Assembly (NCBI GenBank): GCA_006503475.1
Contig: RSEH01000213.1
Coordinates: 1 to 64,000, forward strand
DNA from: Stentor roeselii
Lineage: Eukaryota > Ciliophora > Heterotrichea > Heterotrichida > Stentoridae
Direction: 5' to 3'
Length of the DNA stretch: 64,000 nucleotides
Both the position numbers and the translations under genes were made by a program. Positions within the stretch are counted from its first letter, which is position 1, and the number at the start of each line of letters is the position of its first letter. Under the pieces are notes generated by a model. The model saw nothing but the letters and a program-made list of their open reading frames with translations, had not been told where the DNA came from and ran no database searches. Below, in pieces: positions 773 to 11,765 of the stretch.

Positions 773-1677
773 TGTTTTGGAAAAGTCATTAAAAGATTTG
801 TCGGAGAGTCAAGAGATAGCTATGTTTCTAAATTTACAAATTACAATTATTGTTTCAACGGGGATATCGCAATTGTCTTAATAAAATTAAAAATAAGTGA
901 TACCCCCAAATTTTATGAATTTTCTACTCTGGCTAGTCATCAAGCAATCTGTTGTATATCAGGATATCCAAAAAAGCCTGATGATCTTTCATATTCAATA
1001 CCTCAATTAGACCCCAGAGACCAAACTGAATTAGAAAGAAAAGCGAATGAAATATTCTGCAATTTTAAAGGACATGTCTACTCTGAAGGTAAAGTCGAAA
1101 GCGATTTAAATGAAATCATAGAAATCTCGTGTTTAACAACTAACGGGATGTCAGGAAGCCCGATAGTGATCGAAAAGAAAGTAGTGGGACTTTATGTTGG
1201 AGGACCTCCTATCCCAGGCCAAAGAGAAGTGGTTGAAATTTTAAGGAGACTTTCAAGAAAAGAAGACTTGAAAATGATCCTCGAAGACATCGAAAGGCTA
1301 AAAAATTTTGATCGATTATATGACAATGATGTTTTTGCTGACATCTGTAATGCAGGATACTTTAAAAAAGCTCAAATTTTAACAAACATAATGGCAGGCG
1401 AGGGCTAACTATTAATGAAAAAACTGTAGGTGACTCATTATTCAAGTTACCTGATATAAACAGACGTTTAAAGAAATGGATTTTTTTGTTAAAAACAAAC
1501 CTGCTCAGTTCTATCGCTTTAGTAGTCGTGTCTTTTACTGAAAAACACAAGTATAAGGCAAATGTTGGGATATCAACAAAAAGTGATATTTTTAGAGGTA
1601 TCTTTGAGAGAATTGATCTGTTCAACAATTTAACTCATGTTAATTCAACCGAGGACATAATTAGATTACTTAGCTAA
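773..1677 (+). pseudogene. trypsin-like serine protease fragment, 5'-truncated and frameshifted
   Basis: From 773 to 1408 one frame reads a degenerate trypsin-like peptidase. It has an Asp-containing strand GDIAIVLIKL (about 860-889), which resembles the catalytic-Asp region of trypsin-like folds, and the nucleophile motif GMSGSPI (about 1145-1165), followed by VVGLYVGG. The family cleaves peptide bonds using a His-Asp-Ser triad; the His-containing N-terminal part is missing. The frame has no ATG start and is preceded by a stop at 770-772. It ends at TAA 1406-1408, but a different frame stays open to TAG 1675-1677 and continues with ordinary-looking protein (INEKTVGDSLFKLPDINRR and so on), suggesting a frameshift near 1390-1410. 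Truncation plus frameshift favours a decaying gene. A programmed frameshift or an assembly error are alternatives. Confidence 0.55.
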
Positions 1678-2986: not shown

Positions 2987-5900
2987 TTAACTACTAGACC
3001 TAGTTCTATCCTTAAGCTGTTTAAAAAGATTTTTCAACTCTTTCTTTGGTTTTGCAGTTTCATCACTATCAATCCAATCATCTAACTTTGCATAATTTCC
3101 TAATTGTAAAATTAAAATTCCTTTTGATTCGAAGTCATTTCTTGCACCAGTTCCATTATCAAAGTAATAATCTTCTGTTTGACTATTCATATGTACAATT
3201 AGGCTGTCGATGATTATTTGGGATTTATTAGTAATGAATAAGCAATCAGGTGTGCAGGACTCGAGCATATTTTCATAGTTAATGAATTTGAAAATCATTT
3301 CAGATTTTAAATTTTTTTTATTTTTTAACATTCTATACACTTGAGCTCTTTTTGATAAATCATGAAAAATTGTAATAAGGTACTCAAAGACTAAAAAATA
3401 ACCATCATCACTCTGATAGTCTCCATAGTATCTGCAAAAATTTGGAGAATCACTAATATATTTACTAATCATATCGTAATGACTTGCTTCTTTTTCAAAT
3501 TCAATTCGGAGTAGATGTTTTGTATATTTTGTAATGTTTTGATTGTAAACATATTTTTTTACTAAAACATTCTGAAGGAAATAGTTGGCGGAATAATAAT
3601 GAACCTGATATTGATCATGATGGCTGATATAGATTAAGTTAAAGTCTGATAGTTCCTCTGTGATTATTGGTAATCTCATAAATGTAGTTCTTTGCAAATA
3701 CAATATTTTAAAGATTTCCCTGCATTTCGTCAAATAAACCCGAAAGTTTCCAGACGTAGAACTGATCAGATATTCAAAAATTGCATAATTGTAATGCCCA
3801 AACTGAATACATTCACTATTAAAATCCTTTATAAACTTTTTCAACAGATTCTTTGCAAAAGGACTTAAAAATTTTACGTAAAATCCAAGTTCAGAGAATT
3901 TTAAGAGATACTTCGAGATTACCTTAGCTTTGGAACTATCTTTCAAATGAATGTAATCTGCTATTAACTCAGAAAAAGCAACGCTTAATTTTTTCTGAAT
4001 CTTGTGAAGACTCTTTGAATTTTTATATCCACCTTCTAAAAATTCTTTTAAAATTTTAGCTTTTTTATAAAGACATTTAATTTCAAGTCCTTGATAAATG
4101 TTTTGATCTAGTTCTTTGTCCACAACACTCATCAACTTATTTTTGAAGTTAATCCTGCATATTTTATTATTTGAAAGAGACCAAAGATATTTTCCATCAG
4201 TTGTAAACCACAAATGAATTAACCCACTACCAAGTGGTGAACAATACACAGGAAAATATCTAAAAACTTCTTTTAAAGACTTAGAACTCCAAATTTTAAC
4301 ACAGTTGTTTTTATGAGCAGAAGCTATGAATTTGCCATTACTAGAGAAACAAGTAAATAGAGCTGGACTAAGCAATTCACTGATTTCATTTCTTTCTTGC
4401 TTTTGCCTGTAGTCCCAAACTTGAACGATGCTGTTCTTGCACCTAACAATAACGAGATGTTCACTATCACAAGATAAACACTTTACTGCCTTCACTTGAG
4501 GATTGATACTGAAATATTCTATTCGCTTTTCCACATCCCAAACTTTGACAGTCTTATCCTCAGCTGCAGATACTAAAAACTTCGAGTTCAGAGAGTATTT
4601 CAAGCAAGTCACGCCGAATAAATGACCATTCAGGGAAAATTCTTCTTTCTTTTCATGTATATTCCAAATGTGGATTGTGGAGTTCTGATAACCCGCTGCT
4701 AAATACCTGCCGTTTTCGTTAAATGTCATGGAAACAGCACCTTTTGATTTTCCATCAAAGTTGAATTCTTTTCGCTTATTTTTCAAGTTGAATAAAACTA
4801 TTCCTGAATCTTCTAACCCACCAGCTAAAAGTTGATCACATGGACTTAATGCTAGTGATTTGAACCTATTGTTTGGTAAATTAAGGGTATTATCCTTGCT
4901 TCCATCTTTCAGGTTTCGAATGATAATTTGATTTTCTTGTGAGAATGAAGCTAAAAACTCACAATTTGCAGAAAAAATTAAATTTTTTCCAATATCAGAA
5001 CCCAATTTTCTGAAAATTTCTTCTTTTTTCTCATTGAGACTCCAAACTTTTAAACCATCCACTGAGGATCCAGTGATCAAACTCATGCCATCAGAAGAAT
5101 ATTCAATAAATTCCACTTTTTCCGAAAAGGCATCAAAAGAAAATTCAATCTTTTCAGTAAGAATGTTAAAAACAGTTATAATATTCGATATGCAAACACA
5201 AGCTAAAAATTTTGAATCGGGTGAAAAAGTAAGGCAAACAATTTCGGACATGGCTTTCGGAAGATCTACTTGTTTTTTGTTTTGCTGAATGTTCCATATT
5301 TGGCATAGTGGCCCAAAGGCTACAAATGCTCCATTGAATGTGCAGGCTAGACGATTGATGCGAAAATAAGCATTTCTCTTTTTTTGGAGTAATTTTTTTA
5401 CTTTTTCGTTATAATCGAATATTCTAGTGAAACCATTCACTGAAGCCGTATATAGCCCAGCTACTGAGTAGCTAAAGCAAAAGACTTGTAGTGGGCAGTT
5501 ATTAAATGTTAGCTCTTCTATCATTTCAGGAGAATTTAACAGCTTTAAAGTAGAAAATGAAAACCAAATTGCAAGGTAATTATTCTCTGTAGAGTAAAAA
5601 AAACATTTAGGAGTAGTTCTGAGTTTTTTTTGAAAGATGATGATATTTTCCTTAACATCCCATATATTTAATATTTCTTTTTTGGATTCAATCTCCAGAA
5701 GTCTGCCGTCATTCGAGTAAGCGATTGCAATTAAACCATTCAAATGCATTTTAAAAGATATTTTTTCAGCCTTTTTCCTAAAGTTGCATATTCTAGCCTT
5801 TTTGTCCAAAGATACCTTAGCAGTCTCTCGTCCATCAGGGGAAACTGCAAAACAAATGACACTTTGATTACTTCCATAAATAAAAAATTCTTCTTGTTTT

Positions 5901-6904
5901 TTATCAATATTACAAATTTTAATACTCCCGTCAGCACAACCACTAGCAATATATTTTGAATTCGAGGAAAAAGCAATGCTGACAACTCGCCTTGAATGTC
6001 CTTTAAAACAAAATATTTCTTTAATTGTAGCGAAATTGAAAATAACAACCTTTTTATCAGATGAGCCAGTTGCCAAAAGCAGTCCATGAGGAGAGAAGCT
6101 CAAACAGTTTACTTCTTTTGAGTGTCTGTAGTAAGAAAATTTAACTTTTCTATTTTTTAAGTCCCATACATATAAATCTTTATATTTATCGCAAACTGCT
6201 AAAAATTGTCCGTTACTTGAAAAGCTTAGCGAATTTACTAGTCGATAGTAAATGTTTAGCATAAACTCCATTCTTTTTTCAATTAAATTCCAGATTTTCA
6301 CGCTTTGATCTAGAGAAGCTGTTGCTAAGTAATCACCTGTTGGGGAATAACTAACACGTCTTACACTTTTCGAGTGTATTTGAATAGTGTATTCTTCTTT
6401 CTTACTGTTAATGTTCCAGATCTTTACAGATGAATCTGATGAGGCTGATGCTAAGAAATCACCTTTTGGACAGTAAGAAATGCAATTTATTCCTTGTTGA
6501 TGCCCACTTAATGAAAATTCCTCGATGTTTTCTTGTATGTTGATGACTTTTATTGATGTGTCTTTACATCCTATTGATAAAAATCTTGAGTTTGGAGAAA
6601 TTGACAGGCAATTAAAATTTCTGGAATGATTTGATACTGTTGATTTTTTTTTATTGAAGAGATTCAAGATCTCAAGTGTTTCTTCGAATAAGGCAGCCAA
6701 GTAGAGACCACAAGGGGAGTAAGATATTCCTCTTATTGATCCTGAATTCTTTTCAATAGTTCTTCCTGCCCATGAAAACTTAGAGTGAATGCATTGGTTA
6801 ACATCTTTTGAAAAGCTTTCTGATTCTTTTATTGCTTGTTGATTCAGAAGTTTTAAATCATTCTGATTATCTGAGAATATTTCTTCAATCAGGTGATTTT
6901 CCAT
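2987..6904 (-). CDS. large WD40-repeat protein with a C-terminal degenerate kinase-like domain
   Basis: A 1305-residue intronless ORF from ATG at 6904. After about 50 residues it carries a long series of WD40 repeats to about residue 930, roughly twenty blades with recurrent xVKIWN/IxIWN endings and SxDxSVKIWN loops, enough for two or three beta-propellers. WD40 propellers bind proteins. A helical linker follows. Residues about 1090-1280 resemble a protein kinase that has lost key residues: a beta3-like NVLVKKY (Lys 1116/1117), an alphaC-like EFEKEASHY, a hinge-like LVFEYL (1171-1176), a catalytic-loop-like CTPDCLFI (1217-1224) where HRD would be, and QIIIDS (Asp 1233) in the DFG area. So I infer a pseudokinase. 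It faces a second pseudokinase gene 832 bp away across a shared upstream region. The WD40 call is firm; the kinase-like call is moderate. Confidence 0.85.
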   Translation of the reverse strand: MENHLIEEIFSDNQNDLKLLNQQAIKESESFSKDVNQCIHSKFSWAGRTIEKNSGSIRGISYSPCGLYLAALFEETLEILNLFNKKKSTVSNHSRNFNCLSISPNSRFLSIGCKDTSIKVINIQENIEEFSLSGHQQGINCISYCPKGDFLASASSDSSVKIWNINSKKEEYTIQIHSKSVRRVSYSPTGDYLATASLDQSVKIWNLIEKRMEFMLNIYYRLVNSLSFSSNGQFLAVCDKYKDLYVWDLKNRKVKFSYYRHSKEVNCLSFSPHGLLLATGSSDKKVVIFNFATIKEIFCFKGHSRRVVSIAFSSNSKYIASGCADGSIKICNIDKKQEEFFIYGSNQSVICFAVSPDGRETAKVSLDKKARICNFRKKAEKISFKMHLNGLIAIAYSNDGRLLEIESKKEILNIWDVKENIIIFQKKLRTTPKCFFYSTENNYLAIWFSFSTLKLLNSPEMIEELTFNNCPLQVFCFSYSVAGLYTASVNGFTRIFDYNEKVKKLLQKKRNAYFRINRLACTFNGAFVAFGPLCQIWNIQQNKKQVDLPKAMSEIVCLTFSPDSKFLACVCISNIITVFNILTEKIEFSFDAFSEKVEFIEYSSDGMSLITGSSVDGLKVWSLNEKKEEIFRKLGSDIGKNLIFSANCEFLASFSQENQIIIRNLKDGSKDNTLNLPNNRFKSLALSPCDQLLAGGLEDSGIVLFNLKNKRKEFNFDGKSKGAVSMTFNENGRYLAAGYQNSTIHIWNIHEKKEEFSLNGHLFGVTCLKYSLNSKFLVSAAEDKTVKVWDVEKRIEYFSINPQVKAVKCLSCDSEHLVIVRCKNSIVQVWDYRQKQERNEISELLSPALFTCFSSNGKFIASAHKNNCVKIWSSKSLKEVFRYFPVYCSPLGSGLIHLWFTTDGKYLWSLSNNKICRINFKNKLMSVVDKELDQNIYQGLEIKCLYKKAKILKEFLEGGYKNSKSLHKIQKKLSVAFSELIADYIHLKDSSKAKVISKYLLKFSELGFYVKFLSPFAKNLLKKFIKDFNSECIQFGHYNYAIFEYLISSTSGNFRVYLTKCREIFKILYLQRTTFMRLPIITEELSDFNLIYISHHDQYQVHYYSANYFLQNVLVKKYVYNQNITKYTKHLLRIEFEKEASHYDMISKYISDSPNFCRYYGDYQSDDGYFLVFEYLITIFHDLSKRAQVYRMLKNKKNLKSEMIFKFINYENMLESCTPDCLFITNKSQIIIDSLIVHMNSQTEDYYFDNGTGARNDFESKGILILQLGNYAKLDDWIDSDETAKPKKELKNLFKQLKDRTRSSS

Positions 6905-7736
6905 ATATTAAAGCTCTAATAAATTTTCATCGATTTTCATATTTGGGATAGAATAAATTTTAGATTTAAGTGTTTTTCATGTGAAAAATCAGGATGTGAT
7001 AAAATAGATGCTCATCACTATTTCGTGTCTACTTTATGCAAGAATGATCTCCATTTTTTCGTTCCTCTCAAACTCTATTAACCTCTTTAAGCTGTAGTTG
7101 AACTAAACTGAAGGGTGAGAATATCATTATAAACGATTACATCTCCAAATATAATTTTTAAAAAATTGATTTGAATAGTTTTGCAAATTTTATGATAATC
7201 TCTGTCTGCTTTTTTTAAGATTGATTTTCATTCTTTCATACTTCTTAACCTCTATTACCTATTAAGCTTAAGTTTAACTACATTGAAGGGTAAATAATAT
7301 CATTAAAGTTTCTTCTCTGAAACTAATCCTCTATCAACAATAGGGTTGAACCATGTTGCAATCCATCTAATACTCTCTAGGATATAAATTTTGATATGCA
7401 AGTTCTATTGAAATAATTTTTGACCTATAAAACTCAATGTTTTTGAATTGATTCATATACCTCAGTATTAGAAAAAAAAATTATATCTATTTCGAGTTAA
7501 ACTTCCATTTTCCTATAATCCTAACATAGCAATAATTTTATAATAAAATTAGAAGGAAGCATCTATATTAGTTCTCATCCAAATTTTAAATGATTGATAT
7601 CTTTATATTGAAGTATATGAAATTAAAAATATATTTTATTCACTTCTAAATATTCTTTTTGAATTATAAATTATAATTTGATAGTATATATTGACATTTT
7701 TACATAAGGAAAAAAGGTAGATCGATTAAAACTATT
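6905..7736. promoter_or_regulatory. AT-rich divergent intergenic region between the WD40 and pseudokinase genes
   Basis: This 832-bp spacer separates two start codons that point away from each other, so it must hold both promoters. It has no ORF. It includes an imperfect direct duplication (7017-7306). The length is unusual here, since divergent genes in the conserved blocks are 9-230 bp apart. Confidence 0.5.
7017..7306. repeat. imperfect direct duplication, two copies about 177 bp apart
   Basis: Copy A at about 7017-7130 and copy B at about 7193-7306 share segments in the same order: a CTCTATTA...CCT element, an AAGCTG/AAGCTTAAG...TTGAACTA/TTTAACTA stretch, then ACTGAAGGGT/ATTGAAGGGT and ATATCATTA. 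The copies have diverged by substitutions and small indels. Confidence 0.55.
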
Positions 7737-9920
7737 ATGGCTTTGTATATAAATATGGAATTTGGTTTAGTCAACACAAGCAGTCAAATAAAATCTAAAT
7801 TTGAGCCATACTTCTTGTATCTTGAACAAGAAATCATTAATTCTGAGCAAATTAATTCAGATAGAAGAATGTTCAATAGCTGTATCATAGAAAATTTCCA
7901 AACTGTATTGGTAACTACTTCGGGTCCTAAAGAATGTACGATTAGAGTAGTTGAAGGTCCTGCAGAAGTTGTTTGCCAATATGCAAACAACGAACTTTTA
8001 GCATATTATTTATTATTTGATTCTCATTTCTTTACCAAACCTGCTGGTTTTTGTATATCTGAAGAAAGTCAAGGTAGAGTAACTTATAAAATTGCTATTG
8101 AAATTTATCTCAAAAGCTTGGAAGATGCCAAAGTTTATTCTGAATATCAAAAAAATAAAATTATTTCCAATTTATTCCTAGCACTGAATGAGCTAAACTG
8201 CAAAGATGTGTTTCATGGATCATTGTTTATAAAAAACATTTTCCTTGATGAACAATTAAATCCAAAAATTAAGTTTGATTTATTAGTAAGGTCTTCCTTG
8301 TTCTTTGAAGAAAGTGATTTTTTTTATTACTTTAAAGACTTACTAAATCTTGAAGAATGTGACTTAAAATATTTGCCTCCAGAATTCACATTTATTTTAC
8401 AATTATTAAATAAAGATCAAATGTTATATATGAATAATCCTAAAAAAATTGATATATATACTATCGGAATTACTGGATGCATAATACTTGGTCTGAAACT
8501 TAATGACTTGAAAACTATTAACATCGATACAGATATAAACATGAAATCAATTCATCATTTTATTACATATGAAGAATACTTAGAAACTGAGGAGAGCAGA
8601 GAAGCAATTTTATATTTTGAGGAAATAAGACCAATATTAAAAAATAATATATATAAATCCAATAGCATAAAGATAAGAAAGCTTCTCAATGATAGTACTG
8701 AAATCAACCACAACATCAGATCTTTTGATATTAATTATGCCATAATGGAAGACCCAGAAGAAGATGAAGAAATAAATATAGACCAAAGGATTTTATTGAA
8801 TACATTAAAAAGAGAATGCGCTAAAATTTTAATATTGATTGCAAAAGGTAACTTTAATGATGCAAACCAATTAGCAAACAAAACTCTGACGGAACATGAA
8901 AAAGAGTTTTCTATGGCTGATAATAAATATTATAATACAAAGTGCTCTGCTGAATATATTAAAAGAATTGAAGGAATTTTCTTGTTTTTTTACCATTTGT
9001 TATCTCTTCTATCTCATCAACTTGAGAATTTTTTTAACAGCAGTGATCCTCTTAACCAAAAAAAAGAAGTTATTCCAAATTTTCAGCAATTGATCTATAG
9101 AGAAATTAGAGAATCCCAAACAAACTTTCCTGAAAATTTTTATATATTCTTTGATAAATTAATAAAAAGCGACAAAATAAAAAAAAATTACATAATACAA
9201 GCATTATTAGTATTCCAGTTAGATGATTGGAAATACTATTTTTGTTCAAATATTTTAGATACATTAAAATTCGAGAAATTAACAGATTTTCCTTTATTGA
9301 TTCAAGAAATAAAGCAGATTTTTAATAAGCCTATAGTTTCGAGAGTAATGCAAATGTTCATACAAGGAGATAATGATTTTATTGAATCTATTCAAAGTTT
9401 GATCTCGAATACATTTTTTACTACAATGTTTCCAAGTGCACACGGTTTCTCAACATATAATCGTTATGCATTTATAAGTTCACAAGACAAGGACATGAGA
9501 AATGCTGATATCAGATATAGATCAGCTATATATATAATAATTATCCACGAATATGCTCACTTGCTAAGGAGACTAAATTTTAAATCATATCGAGATGCGA
9601 AAAATGCGTATACTCCTCCAAACTCCCAAGAAGATGAAGGAAAAATATATAATGAAAATTTTCAGGTCAGAGAAAATATTATGAAGAATCAAGGTGAATC
9701 TGGATTCAAGGCTGAAATGTGTTTATTTGGTTCTGAAGTAATTAATATTACAAGACCTGCAGCTGATTATCTAGTAACATTTGAACCCAGGGTGTCTTTA
9801 GAAGAATTTAGAACAGAATTTATTCATCGTCAAACCTTAGAGCCAAGATCAAGAATTGATATTTCTCGATCATCTAATATGATAGGATTATCAAAACGTT
9901 GTGCATACTCAAGATTTTAG
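7737..9920 (+). CDS. pseudokinase-like domain fused to an HEXXH metallopeptidase-like domain
   Basis: A 727-residue intronless ORF starting at ATG 7737. Residues about 55-255 follow the order of protein kinase motifs with losses: CTIRVVE in place of the beta3 Lys motif, NNELLAYYLL as an alphaC-like helix, HGSLFIKNIFLD (160-171) where an active kinase has HRDxxxxN, so the catalytic Asp is Ser but Asn167 is kept, then KFDLL (Asp181) for DFG, LPPEF (213-217) for APE, and DIYTIGITG (239-247) for the alphaF motif. I infer a pseudokinase. After a helical middle part, HEYAH (604-608) is a classic zinc-binding HEXXH motif. GESGFKAEMCLFG follows about 45 residues later and could supply the third, Glu ligand (Glu654 or Glu660), so a zinc metallopeptidase domain is likely. 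I do not recognise this fusion as a named family. Low GC and absence of introns match the island, not the conserved neighbours. Confidence 0.7.
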   Translation: MALYINMEFGLVNTSSQIKSKFEPYFLYLEQEIINSEQINSDRRMFNSCIIENFQTVLVTTSGPKECTIRVVEGPAEVVCQYANNELLAYYLLFDSHFFTKPAGFCISEESQGRVTYKIAIEIYLKSLEDAKVYSEYQKNKIISNLFLALNELNCKDVFHGSLFIKNIFLDEQLNPKIKFDLLVRSSLFFEESDFFYYFKDLLNLEECDLKYLPPEFTFILQLLNKDQMLYMNNPKKIDIYTIGITGCIILGLKLNDLKTINIDTDINMKSIHHFITYEEYLETEESREAILYFEEIRPILKNNIYKSNSIKIRKLLNDSTEINHNIRSFDINYAIMEDPEEDEEINIDQRILLNTLKRECAKILILIAKGNFNDANQLANKTLTEHEKEFSMADNKYYNTKCSAEYIKRIEGIFLFFYHLLSLLSHQLENFFNSSDPLNQKKEVIPNFQQLIYREIRESQTNFPENFYIFFDKLIKSDKIKKNYIIQALLVFQLDDWKYYFCSNILDTLKFEKLTDFPLLIQEIKQIFNKPIVSRVMQMFIQGDNDFIESIQSLISNTFFTTMFPSAHGFSTYNRYAFISSQDKDMRNADIRYRSAIYIIIIHEYAHLLRRLNFKSYRDAKNAYTPPNSQEDEGKIYNENFQVRENIMKNQGESGFKAEMCLFGSEVINITRPAADYLVTFEPRVSLEEFRTEFIHRQTLEPRSRIDISRSSNMIGLSKRCAYSRF

Positions 9921-10834
9921 ACTAAATAAAGTTAGGAAATAATGTTTAGATGAAATTTTTGCATAATTAATTAAGATGCTTACACTTTCAGATTTCTTTT
10001 TAAAAAACAAAATATCTTGGAAATTTGTTTATTTCATCAAAAATTTGTATTCTCTTTACGAGAATAAATGATGTTATAGAGGTTTATTTTAATTCAAGTA
10101 TTGGCTGAGTTAGATGAATTTTGAAGGATGAAGTGAGTGGAAAACTTACTGTTTAACTATTCGGCTGGTTATTTAATTAAAAGCTTTCAGTTTTTAATCT
10201 ATAGAAGGGGAGGATTATGTTTAGTGTCTTACTAATAAACTTTTACTTAATCATGAAGTTCATCTTTTCGAAGTTAAGTTTTTTAAGAAAATTAGAGTTT
10301 TTTTTATGTCTATTTCACTTAGAGTATCAGGTTAGTTTAAATTCAACAGTTGTTTAATATTATTTTATTCAAGGAAATCTTGCATAATTTTCCTAAAAAT
10401 TCAATTGCATCACCCCTTTTAATTATATCTTGAGATTGATTTTGTACTTCAAGATTATTTTTAATGCGTAAGTTACTCTTCTGAAGTTAAGATGTTATAT
10501 TTCTGGACTATGCGTATCGAGAGAAATTGTCTAATATAGAAAAATTGTATTATATATAATGAGATGAAAGCTAAAAGTTATTAGAAATTGTTTAATGATA
10601 AGTTATCATAGCATAATATCTGCAGTATCCCTTATCTTTTCAAATCTTTCAGCTTACAATAAAAGAATGATGAAATCAAAGTAACCAGTATAGATTTATT
10701 AATGGTTAAATTTTCCTACTTTTAATCATACATTGATATCTTTTCGATAAATAATAACAATAGTTAAAATAAACAAAAATATTCTTCACTATAAAATAAT
10801 CATAATAAACTCTTAACTATTTTTCCTTATTTAA
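9921..10834. other. AT-rich gene-free stretch
   Basis: About 0.9 kb between the pseudokinase-metallopeptidase gene and the TVP15-like gene. No supported gene or RNA. The only structure I noticed is a short hairpin at about 10049-10065 (ATTCTC, 5-nt loop, GAGAAT), which is weak. Confidence 0.65.
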
Positions 10835-11260: not shown

Positions 11261-11481
11261 TTATAATGGAAATATTGAATCTTCTAATCAACTCATCAAA
11301 ATTTTCAATTTTTTTCTGTTCTGACTACTGATGATCAGTTCATCCATAGAATGATTGATGATAGATCAGCAATTGTTTATCTGATACCTTGAATAAAATA
11401 TCTAATAATTAATCTTATCAAAATTTTTAAATAATATCATCTCATCAACAGTTTTAGTCCTCTTAATTAACAGTTGCTCAA

Positions 11482-11553
11482 GGGTGGTTAGCTCAGCGGT
11501 AGAGCAATTGACTGCAGATCAATAGGTCATTGGTTCAACTCCGATACCGCCCT
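11482..11553 (+). tRNA. tRNA-Cys (GCA), copy 1
   Basis: A full cloverleaf: acceptor GGGTGGT pairs with ACCGCCC (one G-U pair), D arm GCTC...GAGC, anticodon stem ATTGA/TCAAT with loop CTGCAGA giving anticodon GCA, and a T arm ATTGG/CCGAT with loop TTCAACT. The discriminator base is T, as expected for tRNA-Cys. A run of six T (11553-11558) serves as the Pol III terminator. No intron. Confidence 0.95.
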
Positions 11554-11658
11554 TTTTTATGAAATACAATAAACTCACTACTAAGATTAAGTCTAAATAA
11601 ACTATTGACTTCTGATAATCATCTAAACTTTTAATCTTCTACTCTGCCAAATCTTCAA

Positions 11659-11730
11659 GGGTGGTTAGCTCAGCGGTAGAGCAATTGACTGCAGATCAAT
11701 AGGTCATTGGTTCAACTCCGATACCGCCCT
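11659..11730 (+). tRNA. tRNA-Cys (GCA), copy 2
   Basis: Identical in sequence to the copy at 11482-11553, 177 bp downstream on the same strand, again followed by a T6 terminator (11730-11735). The flanks differ except for a few bases directly next to the gene, so this is a tandem gene duplication with diverged spacers. Confidence 0.95.
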
Positions 11731-11765
11731 TTTTTATAGGATTACATAACTATCCTAAATTTATA

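What the first reader, a model, noticed from the sequence alone, without database searches (positions are those of the whole stretch)
2987..9920. Divergent pair of genes each carrying a pseudokinase-like domain, one with WD40 propellers, one with a metallopeptidase
Seen: two intronless genes in an AT-rich, gene-poor island point away from each other over an 832-bp spacer. The left one ends in a degenerate kinase-like region (NVLVKKY, LVFEYL, CTPDCLFI in place of HRD). The right one starts with a degenerate kinase (HGS in place of HRD, Asn kept) and has HEYAH. Known: paired genes with interacting domains and divergent promoters can act together. Inference: sensor (WD40) and effector (metallopeptidase) could form an undescribed signalling or conflict module. 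This is the most system-like content in the window.
Basis: partly seen in the sequence, partly recalled or inferred. Interest (0 to 1): 0.8.

Follow-up and report, generated by a model that had tools for sequence, protein, structure and literature searches.

The report
Neighbouring pseudokinase genes from subtelomeric families
Two neighbouring ciliate genes, one for a propeller-plus-dead-kinase protein and one for a dead-kinase-plus-metalloprotease-like protein, look like chance neighbours from two gene families that gather near chromosome ends, and one of those families shows signs of a fast-changing recognition repertoire.

Summary
Two uninterrupted ORFs (1305 and 727 aa) diverge over 832 bp: WD40 repeats plus C-terminal pseudokinase on the left, N-terminal pseudokinase plus HExxH domain on the right. 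Family alignments and profiles support both kinase-like parts; the HRD aspartate is lost in both families.

The inferred module is not supported. The closest copy of the right gene (contig C287) lies in a duplicated block that ends 83 bp before the left gene's start codon; no match to the left gene lies in C287:17000-35000. Contigs with the two families overlap little more than chance (3 shared, 1.66 expected, P=0.23; P=0.08 if an unread WD40 frame at the C287 end counts).

Instead there are two expanded, AT-rich families near contig ends (telomere on 6 of 17 near ends read, 0 of 30 control starts).

Unexpectedly, in six relatives of the left gene the WD40 units have lost positional orthology, and diversity is high at the four unit positions known from fungal HNWD allorecognition receptors. 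The window copy lacks this. The HExxH domain matches no family searched and is conserved. No structure model was obtained; recognition and protease functions are inferred.

The parts
2987..6904 (-). Gene A (P0001), 1305 aa, one open frame: WD40 repeats, linker, C-terminal degenerate pseudokinase
4192..6748 (-). WD40 repeat region of gene A (about residues 53-905, boundaries approximate); repeats decayed, mean 27% aa identity among the 3 in-register units found
3620..4120 (-). Linker shared with the WD40-pseudokinase family (boundary approximate; helical by eye)
3035..3619 (-). Pseudokinase of gene A: beta-3 Lys and alpha-C Glu kept, HRD not recognisable, C-lobe shortened (boundary approximate)
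6905..7736 (.). 832-bp spacer; its part from 6987 on is duplicated together with gene B on contig C287
6987..10354 (+). Block duplicated on contig C287 (86.8% identity over 7027-10354; 81% over 6987-7268); contains gene B, not gene A
7737..9920 (+). Gene B (P0002), 727 aa, one open frame: N-terminal pseudokinase, middle part, C-terminal HExxH domain
7899..8501 (+). Pseudokinase of gene B: HRD to HGS, no Lys at the beta-3 place assigned by eye, DFG not recognisable, APE as PPE (boundary approximate)
9387..9917 (+). Zincin-like domain of gene B (HExAH ... GExGFxxExxxFG; boundary approximate)
9546..9560 (+). HEYAH motif
9696..9716 (+). ESGFKAE: two glutamates invariant in 11 of 11 aligned members, candidate third metal ligands

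Best explanation
The two genes are chance neighbours from two separately expanded families that gather near chromosome ends in a heterotrich-like ciliate genome. Gene A is an old, decayed member of a large WD40-pseudokinase family. In some younger members the propeller looks like a variable protein-binding surface, and the pseudokinase, which keeps Lys and Glu but not the catalytic Asp, would act as a non-catalytic switch or adaptor. Gene B belongs to a small pseudokinase-zincin family: its pseudokinase, without the catalytic Asp, would hold, aim or release a C-terminal HExxH metalloprotease. Shown: domains, family sizes (lower bounds), positions near contig ends, purifying selection between gene B and its copy, a duplication that leaves gene A behind. 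Inferred: the binding surface, the switch role, protease activity, any shared pathway.
For: Kinase fold: (profile-profile E=3.2e-8 between the two families). HRD Asp lost. Duplication of gene B without gene A. Contig sharing 3 of 17 against 1.66 expected, P=0.23. Near contig ends: 9 of the 20 best WD40-pseudokinase matches within 5 kb (P=2e-4) and 7 of 13 HExxH loci (4 of the 17 left out, contig length not fetched; P=3e-4). Telomere on 6 of 17 near ends read against 0 of 30 control contig starts, P=0.0012 (6 of 18 with the window's own start, P=0.0015). Gene B against its C287 copy: dN/dS 0.29 in the pseudokinase, 0.11 in the zincin domain (8.5 nonsynonymous and 19.5 synonymous differences, so a rough value). 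The family genes measured have 26-34% GC.
Against: So a weak association is not excluded. 11 of the 17 near ends, and the window's own contig start, show no telomere. dN/dS between C9 and C453 is 0.52. No expression data, no structure model.
Confidence: 0.68

Rival explanations
1. A and B form a receptor-effector module: A senses through the WD40 surface and activates the protease B through contact of their pseudokinases; the shared spacer co-regulates them.
For: Divergent neighbours in the window; the two pseudokinase families are alike by profile; a second HExxH gene beside a WD40-pseudokinase gene on C53; both families on C453, perhaps also on C287.
Against: The C287 copy of B came with upstream DNA and without A next to it; 1 of 9 loci of the B family has an A-type neighbour in the stretches read, with C223 cut by the contig end; 51 contigs hold A-type matches and 3 of them hold an HExxH gene; the likeness of the two pseudokinases may be general kinase likeness.
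Confidence: 0.13
2. Gene A is a relic on the way to a pseudogene and only gene B is functional; the pair has no joint meaning.
For: A has decayed repeats (27% identity among 3 units), a shortened C-lobe and no close relative (its best-scoring C-terminal match is 28% identical).
Against: A keeps a 1305-aa open frame with beta-3 Lys and alpha-C Glu intact.
Confidence: 0.15
3. The HExxH motif is a chance match and the C-terminal domain of B is not a metalloprotease.
For: No convincing Pfam or NCBIfam match and no PDB profile match; second His lost in 2 of 11 members.
Against: His, Glu and two later Glu in 11 of 11 members of two architectures, second His in 9 of 11; lowest dN/dS of the parts of the protein measured (0.11).
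Confidence: 0.12

Closest known systems
Fungal HNWD non-self recognition receptors (Podospora HET-D/E/R)
   Same: 42-residue WD40 units that have lost positional orthology in six relatives of gene A; high diversity at unit positions 38, 40, 14, 16, which by their spacing match Podospora codons 7, 9, 25, 27 (PMC1805685, passages read); 43 distinct four-residue combinations in 50 units against 55 in 69 in Podospora.
   Different: Pseudokinase instead of NACHT and HET domains, WD40 N-terminal instead of C-terminal; lower within-gene repeat identity; dN/dS at the four positions only 1.10, position 37 as variable as they are, and position 39, between 38 and 40, is not conserved here whereas the matching Podospora codon 8 is. 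The window copy does not show the pattern.
Tetrahymena subtelomeric and pericentromeric LRR gene expansions (PMC6564038, passages read)
   Same: Young repeat-protein families gathered near chromosome ends in a ciliate.
   Different: LRR, not WD40-pseudokinase; germline chromosomes there, contigs of unstated nuclear origin here.
Expanded Stentor kinome with novel domain architectures (Reiff and Marshall 2017; not read, seen only as a citation in PMC9371601, passages)
   Same: By its title, large kinase families with unusual partner domains in a heterotrich.
   Different: Whether these architectures are listed there is unknown.
MLKL and RIPK1 type kinases
   Same: Among the better PDB profile matches of the gene A family; MLKL (4btf) matches over the stretch before the pseudokinase too (profile 154-414, E=7.1e-8).
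   Different: SNF1 scores best (2.9e-12); no membrane-killing domain was looked for; general kinase likeness suffices.

Membership tests
Active protein kinase | HRD Asp and DFG Asp | tested here: not met
   HRD Asp in 0 of 20 rows of the A family (2 gaps) and 0 of 6 of the B family; DFG Asp in 14 of 20 A-family rows, not in gene A as aligned; in the B family not at the place I assign by eye, though a D stands one place further in 2 of 6
Pseudokinase | Kinase fold by profile with catalytic residues lost | tested here: met
   by sequence profile only; the B-family PDB profile match is weak (best E=0.0011)
Zincin metallopeptidase | HExxH | tested here: met
   complete in 9 of 11 aligned members, the window copy included
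Zincin metallopeptidase | Third metal ligand | tested here: inconclusive
   two Glu invariant in 11 of 11; no structure to choose between them
Zincin metallopeptidase | Zincin fold | not testable with these tools
HNWD / fungal NLR | NACHT or NB-ARC domain | tested here: not met
   none among the 25 of 48 Pfam families shown for gene A or among the 11 families of the C-terminal stretches
HNWD / fungal NLR | Repeats over 85% identical within a gene (criterion in PMC4986451, passages read) | tested here: not met
   mean 61-73% aa identity in the six clade genes, 27% in gene A
HNWD / fungal NLR | Diversity concentrated at four surface positions of the WD unit | tested here: met
   for six related genes, not for gene A: 43 distinct combinations in 50 units, reached by 1 of 5000 random four-position sets; 3 of the 4 are among the 6 positions with most nonsynonymous changes, P=0.007
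HNWD / fungal NLR | Positive selection at those positions | tested here: inconclusive
   dN/dS 1.10 at the four against 0.55 elsewhere; of the four only position 40 is below 0.05, uncorrected; position 38 is at 0.45
Conserved two-gene module | Adjacency kept among relatives in this genome | tested here: not met
   exceptions: the window itself and, with a distant HExxH gene, C53

The most novel reading that the evidence does not exclude
This ciliate keeps a subtelomeric recognition repertoire: WD40-pseudokinase proteins with shuffled, hypervariable propeller surfaces act as receptors, and pseudokinase-zincin proteases act as their effectors, coupled through pseudokinase contacts. It would be an NLR-like immune or allorecognition system built on pseudokinases instead of NTPases, with the window pair an eroded remnant of it.
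Probability: 0.12. Interest if true: 0.9.

Novelty: new variant of a known kind. Interest (0 to 1): 0.5.

Why it matters
A WD40 family in a ciliate whose repeat units vary at the positions used by fungal non-self receptors, tied to a pseudokinase, would be a testable candidate for recognition in single-celled eukaryotes. The pseudokinase-zincin fusion with an unassigned, conserved HExxH domain is a second open target. The pair itself, as a module, does not stand on present evidence.

Tried and rejected
Module by adjacency: not supported by the C287 duplication and the contig-sharing test. Viral or prokaryotic origin: no relatives (tblastn E<=1e-3 after pattern filter) of the HExxH profile in viral contigs or genome contigs, none of the A-family profile in viral contigs; gene A was not sought in genome contigs. 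Known metallopeptidase family: no convincing match in Pfam, NCBIfam or PDB (the best weak ones include two metallopeptidase-type models at E 0.035 and 0.16). A resemblance of the GExGFxxExxxFG stretch to fungal HELAH proteins is recalled only and untested. Shared promoter: consensus sites near shuffle level (10 against 6.9, sd 2.5), and that scan covers bacterial promoters only; no ungapped repeats of 20 bases or more in the spacer, although searches suggest a diverged one. WD40 neighbour on C438: channel-like tail and no pseudokinase in its last 450 residues, by eye. A 15-nt intron read by eye in the first kilobase was not tested. Literature: the titles and abstract starts listed show no paper on such a family; bodies were not read beyond the passages cited.

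Limits: the pairwise count of variable sites uses non-independent pairs; the tree-based one assumes no recombination although the units seem to recombine, and dropped 2 of 50 units as too divergent; surface positions vary more in any WD40 set; mapping to the Podospora codons is by spacing, its figure was not seen. The six clade genes were chosen for their units: of the other 15 genes L032 had 8 units, L031 7, and the rest 0-3. Contig sharing ignores contig length; family lists are lower bounds (goes to E<=1; one search scored 107 of 425 candidates). Near ends read for telomeres were those with a family gene within about 9 kb; the far end of C92 was not read. Controls are contig starts picked by number. 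Confidence was lowered from 0.72 to 0.68 and the module raised from 0.10 to 0.13 after the C287 end was reconsidered.
Full report
What is in the window. Two long open frames face away from each other: 2987-6904 on the minus strand (gene A, 1305 aa) and 7737-9920 on the plus strand (gene B, 727 aa), 832 bp apart. The region is AT-rich (29.7% GC in the first 12 kb against 37.7% in the rest). The window is the start of contig C131 (85,226 bp) of an unnamed 44.4-Mb, 522-contig genome. CCCTAACA repeats at other contig ends and standard stop codons fit a heterotrich ciliate; the Blepharisma genome paper names the same repeat (PMC9942806, passages). The species is not established.

Gene A. WD40 repeats fill most of the protein (PF00400, E=1.2e-79). 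The C-terminal 377 residues match no Pfam family alone, but a genome search with them gave 60 matches at E<=1 on 51 contigs, and a search with the relative on C80 gave 107 at E<=0.001, part of them in 500-600-aa frames that match over the kinase part only. In the alignment of gene A with 19 relatives, 16 of 20 rows match PK_Tyr_Ser-Thr and 15 Pkinase at E<=1, best 1.7e-16, and the profile matches 738 PDB sequences at E<=0.001, the 60 shown being kinases and pseudokinases. The beta-3 Lys and the alpha-C Glu are each kept in 19 of 20; the HRD Asp in none (2 gaps); the DFG Asp in 14 of 20, not in gene A as aligned. Gene A has a shortened C-lobe.

Gene B. Nine loci match this family over much of its length or as remnants: the window, C287, C244, C9, C453, C5, C123 (many stops), C223 (cut by the contig end) and C438 (fragment). 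Window, C9 and C5 are single open frames; C287, C244 and C453 are each split by a frame change, which may be an assembly error or real; no short intron explains the one on C244. The N-terminal part is kinase-like (Pkinase in 4 of 6 rows at E<=10, best 2.7e-7, window 0.023; best PDB profile match RIPK1 at 0.0011) and resembles the gene A family at profile level (E=3.2e-8). It lacks the HRD Asp in 6 of 6, has no Lys at the beta-3 place assigned by eye, keeps the alpha-C Glu in 3 of 6 and the PE of APE in 6 of 6. The C-terminal domain has HExAH followed by GExGFxxExxxFG. A search with the C9 protein found eight further, more distant matches to this domain, on C258, C411, C104, C54, C53, C151, C191 and C260 (E 6e-14 to 4e-4). 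Four of them were read (C258, C53, C411, C104): they carry the motif on a different N-terminus, and the one scanned gave no kinase match. Across 11 aligned members (C123, C438 and the four unread ones left out) His, Glu and the two later Glu are invariant; the second His is kept in 9, with Asn on C453 and Tyr on C411. No Pfam or NCBIfam model matches convincingly and no PDB profile match was found. Between the window copy and the C287 copy dN/dS is 0.29 in the pseudokinase and 0.11 in the HExxH domain; between C9 and C453 it is 0.52 over the C-terminal part.

Are they a pair? The C287 copy shares DNA with window 6987-10354 (main piece 86.8% over 3346 aligned columns), which takes gene B and about 750 bp upstream of it but stops 83 bp before the start codon of gene A; tblastn of gene A finds nothing at E<=1 in C287:17000-35000. 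In the stretches read around the other loci of the family, the only other match to gene A is a WD40 frame on C438 with a channel-like tail and no pseudokinase in its last 450 residues, by eye. C223 is cut by the contig end, so its upstream side is unread, and C244, C123 and C5 lie 2-3 kb from their contig ends. The 17 contigs with HExxH matches and the 51 with WD40-pseudokinase matches share C131, C453 and C53: 3 against 1.66 expected, P=0.23. Two facts go the other way. On C53 a distant HExxH gene ends about 2 kb before a WD40-pseudokinase gene on the same strand. The data are therefore compatible with chance and with a weak association, not with a fixed module.

Where the families lie. Of the 20 best WD40-pseudokinase matches, 9 lie within 5 kb of a contig end (P=2e-4); of 17 HExxH loci, 13 with known contig length were counted and 7 lie within 5 kb (P=3e-4). 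Telomere repeats stand on 6 of 17 near ends read and on 0 of 30 control contig starts (P=0.0012); with the window's own start, which has none, 6 of 18 (P=0.0015). Repeat-rich genes can break assemblies, so position near an end is weaker evidence than the telomeres.

An unexpected pattern in some relatives of gene A. In six related genes (C16, C92, C30, C53, C119, C80; L021, L025, L026, L028, L035, L036) the in-register 42-residue WD units are 74-84% identical in DNA on average within a gene. Leaving out the terminal unit, units at the same place in different genes are no more alike than units at different places (0.815 against 0.814; with it 0.816 against 0.783), as expected if units move between places. 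In pairwise counts nonsynonymous differences are highest at unit positions 14, 16, 37 and 38, with 40 and 33 next. Positions 38, 40, 14 and 16 correspond by spacing, as two pairs flanking one residue each and 18 apart, to the Podospora HNWD codons 7, 9, 25 and 27 reported as positively selected (PMC1805685, passages). Taken in advance from that paper, they give 43 distinct combinations in 50 units, a number reached by 1 of 5000 random four-position sets; 3 of the 4 are among the six positions with most nonsynonymous changes on a tree (P=0.007). Against this: dN/dS at the four is 1.10 (0.55 elsewhere), of the four only position 40 is below 0.05 without correction, position 38 is at 0.45, position 37 is as variable, and position 39 is not conserved whereas Podospora codon 8 is. 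Identity within genes stays below the 85% used for fungal NLRs (PMC4986451, passages), no NACHT domain was seen among the matches shown, and surface positions vary in any WD40 set. The other relatives held have few such units, and gene A does not share the pattern; its units are 27% identical.

Mechanism. Most likely gene B is a soluble protease-like protein whose N-terminal pseudokinase gates or aims the HExxH domain, and gene A an aged member of a family in which a variable propeller is read out through a pseudokinase. Neither step was tested. That the two families work together is possible and unproven.

Verdict. The families behind the two genes are the more interesting result.

Noticed in passing
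window 815-1408 (+): Disrupted fragment of a trypsin-like (Trypsin_2, E=0.012) gene; relatives elsewhere in the genome have frames of about 300-470 aa.
   Followed up: partly
window 11481-11554 and 11658-11731 (+): Two tRNA-Cys (GCA) genes inside an identical 83-bp repeat.
   Followed up: no
L021, L025, L026, L028, L035, L036: WD40-pseudokinase genes whose 42-aa units have lost positional orthology and vary at the HNWD positions.
   Followed up: yes
L049:4498-9900 (-), contig C438: Large WD40 frame with a channel-like tail (by eye) beside a fragment of a gene B relative.
   Followed up: partly
L041:7850-9478 and L046:4155-5723: Homologous unknown genes (31% identity) near two gene B relatives on C244 and C5; no clear Pfam match.
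   Followed up: partly
L044:1645-3024 and L059:77-1816: HExxH relatives with the second His changed to Asn or Tyr, possibly dead proteases.
   Followed up: no
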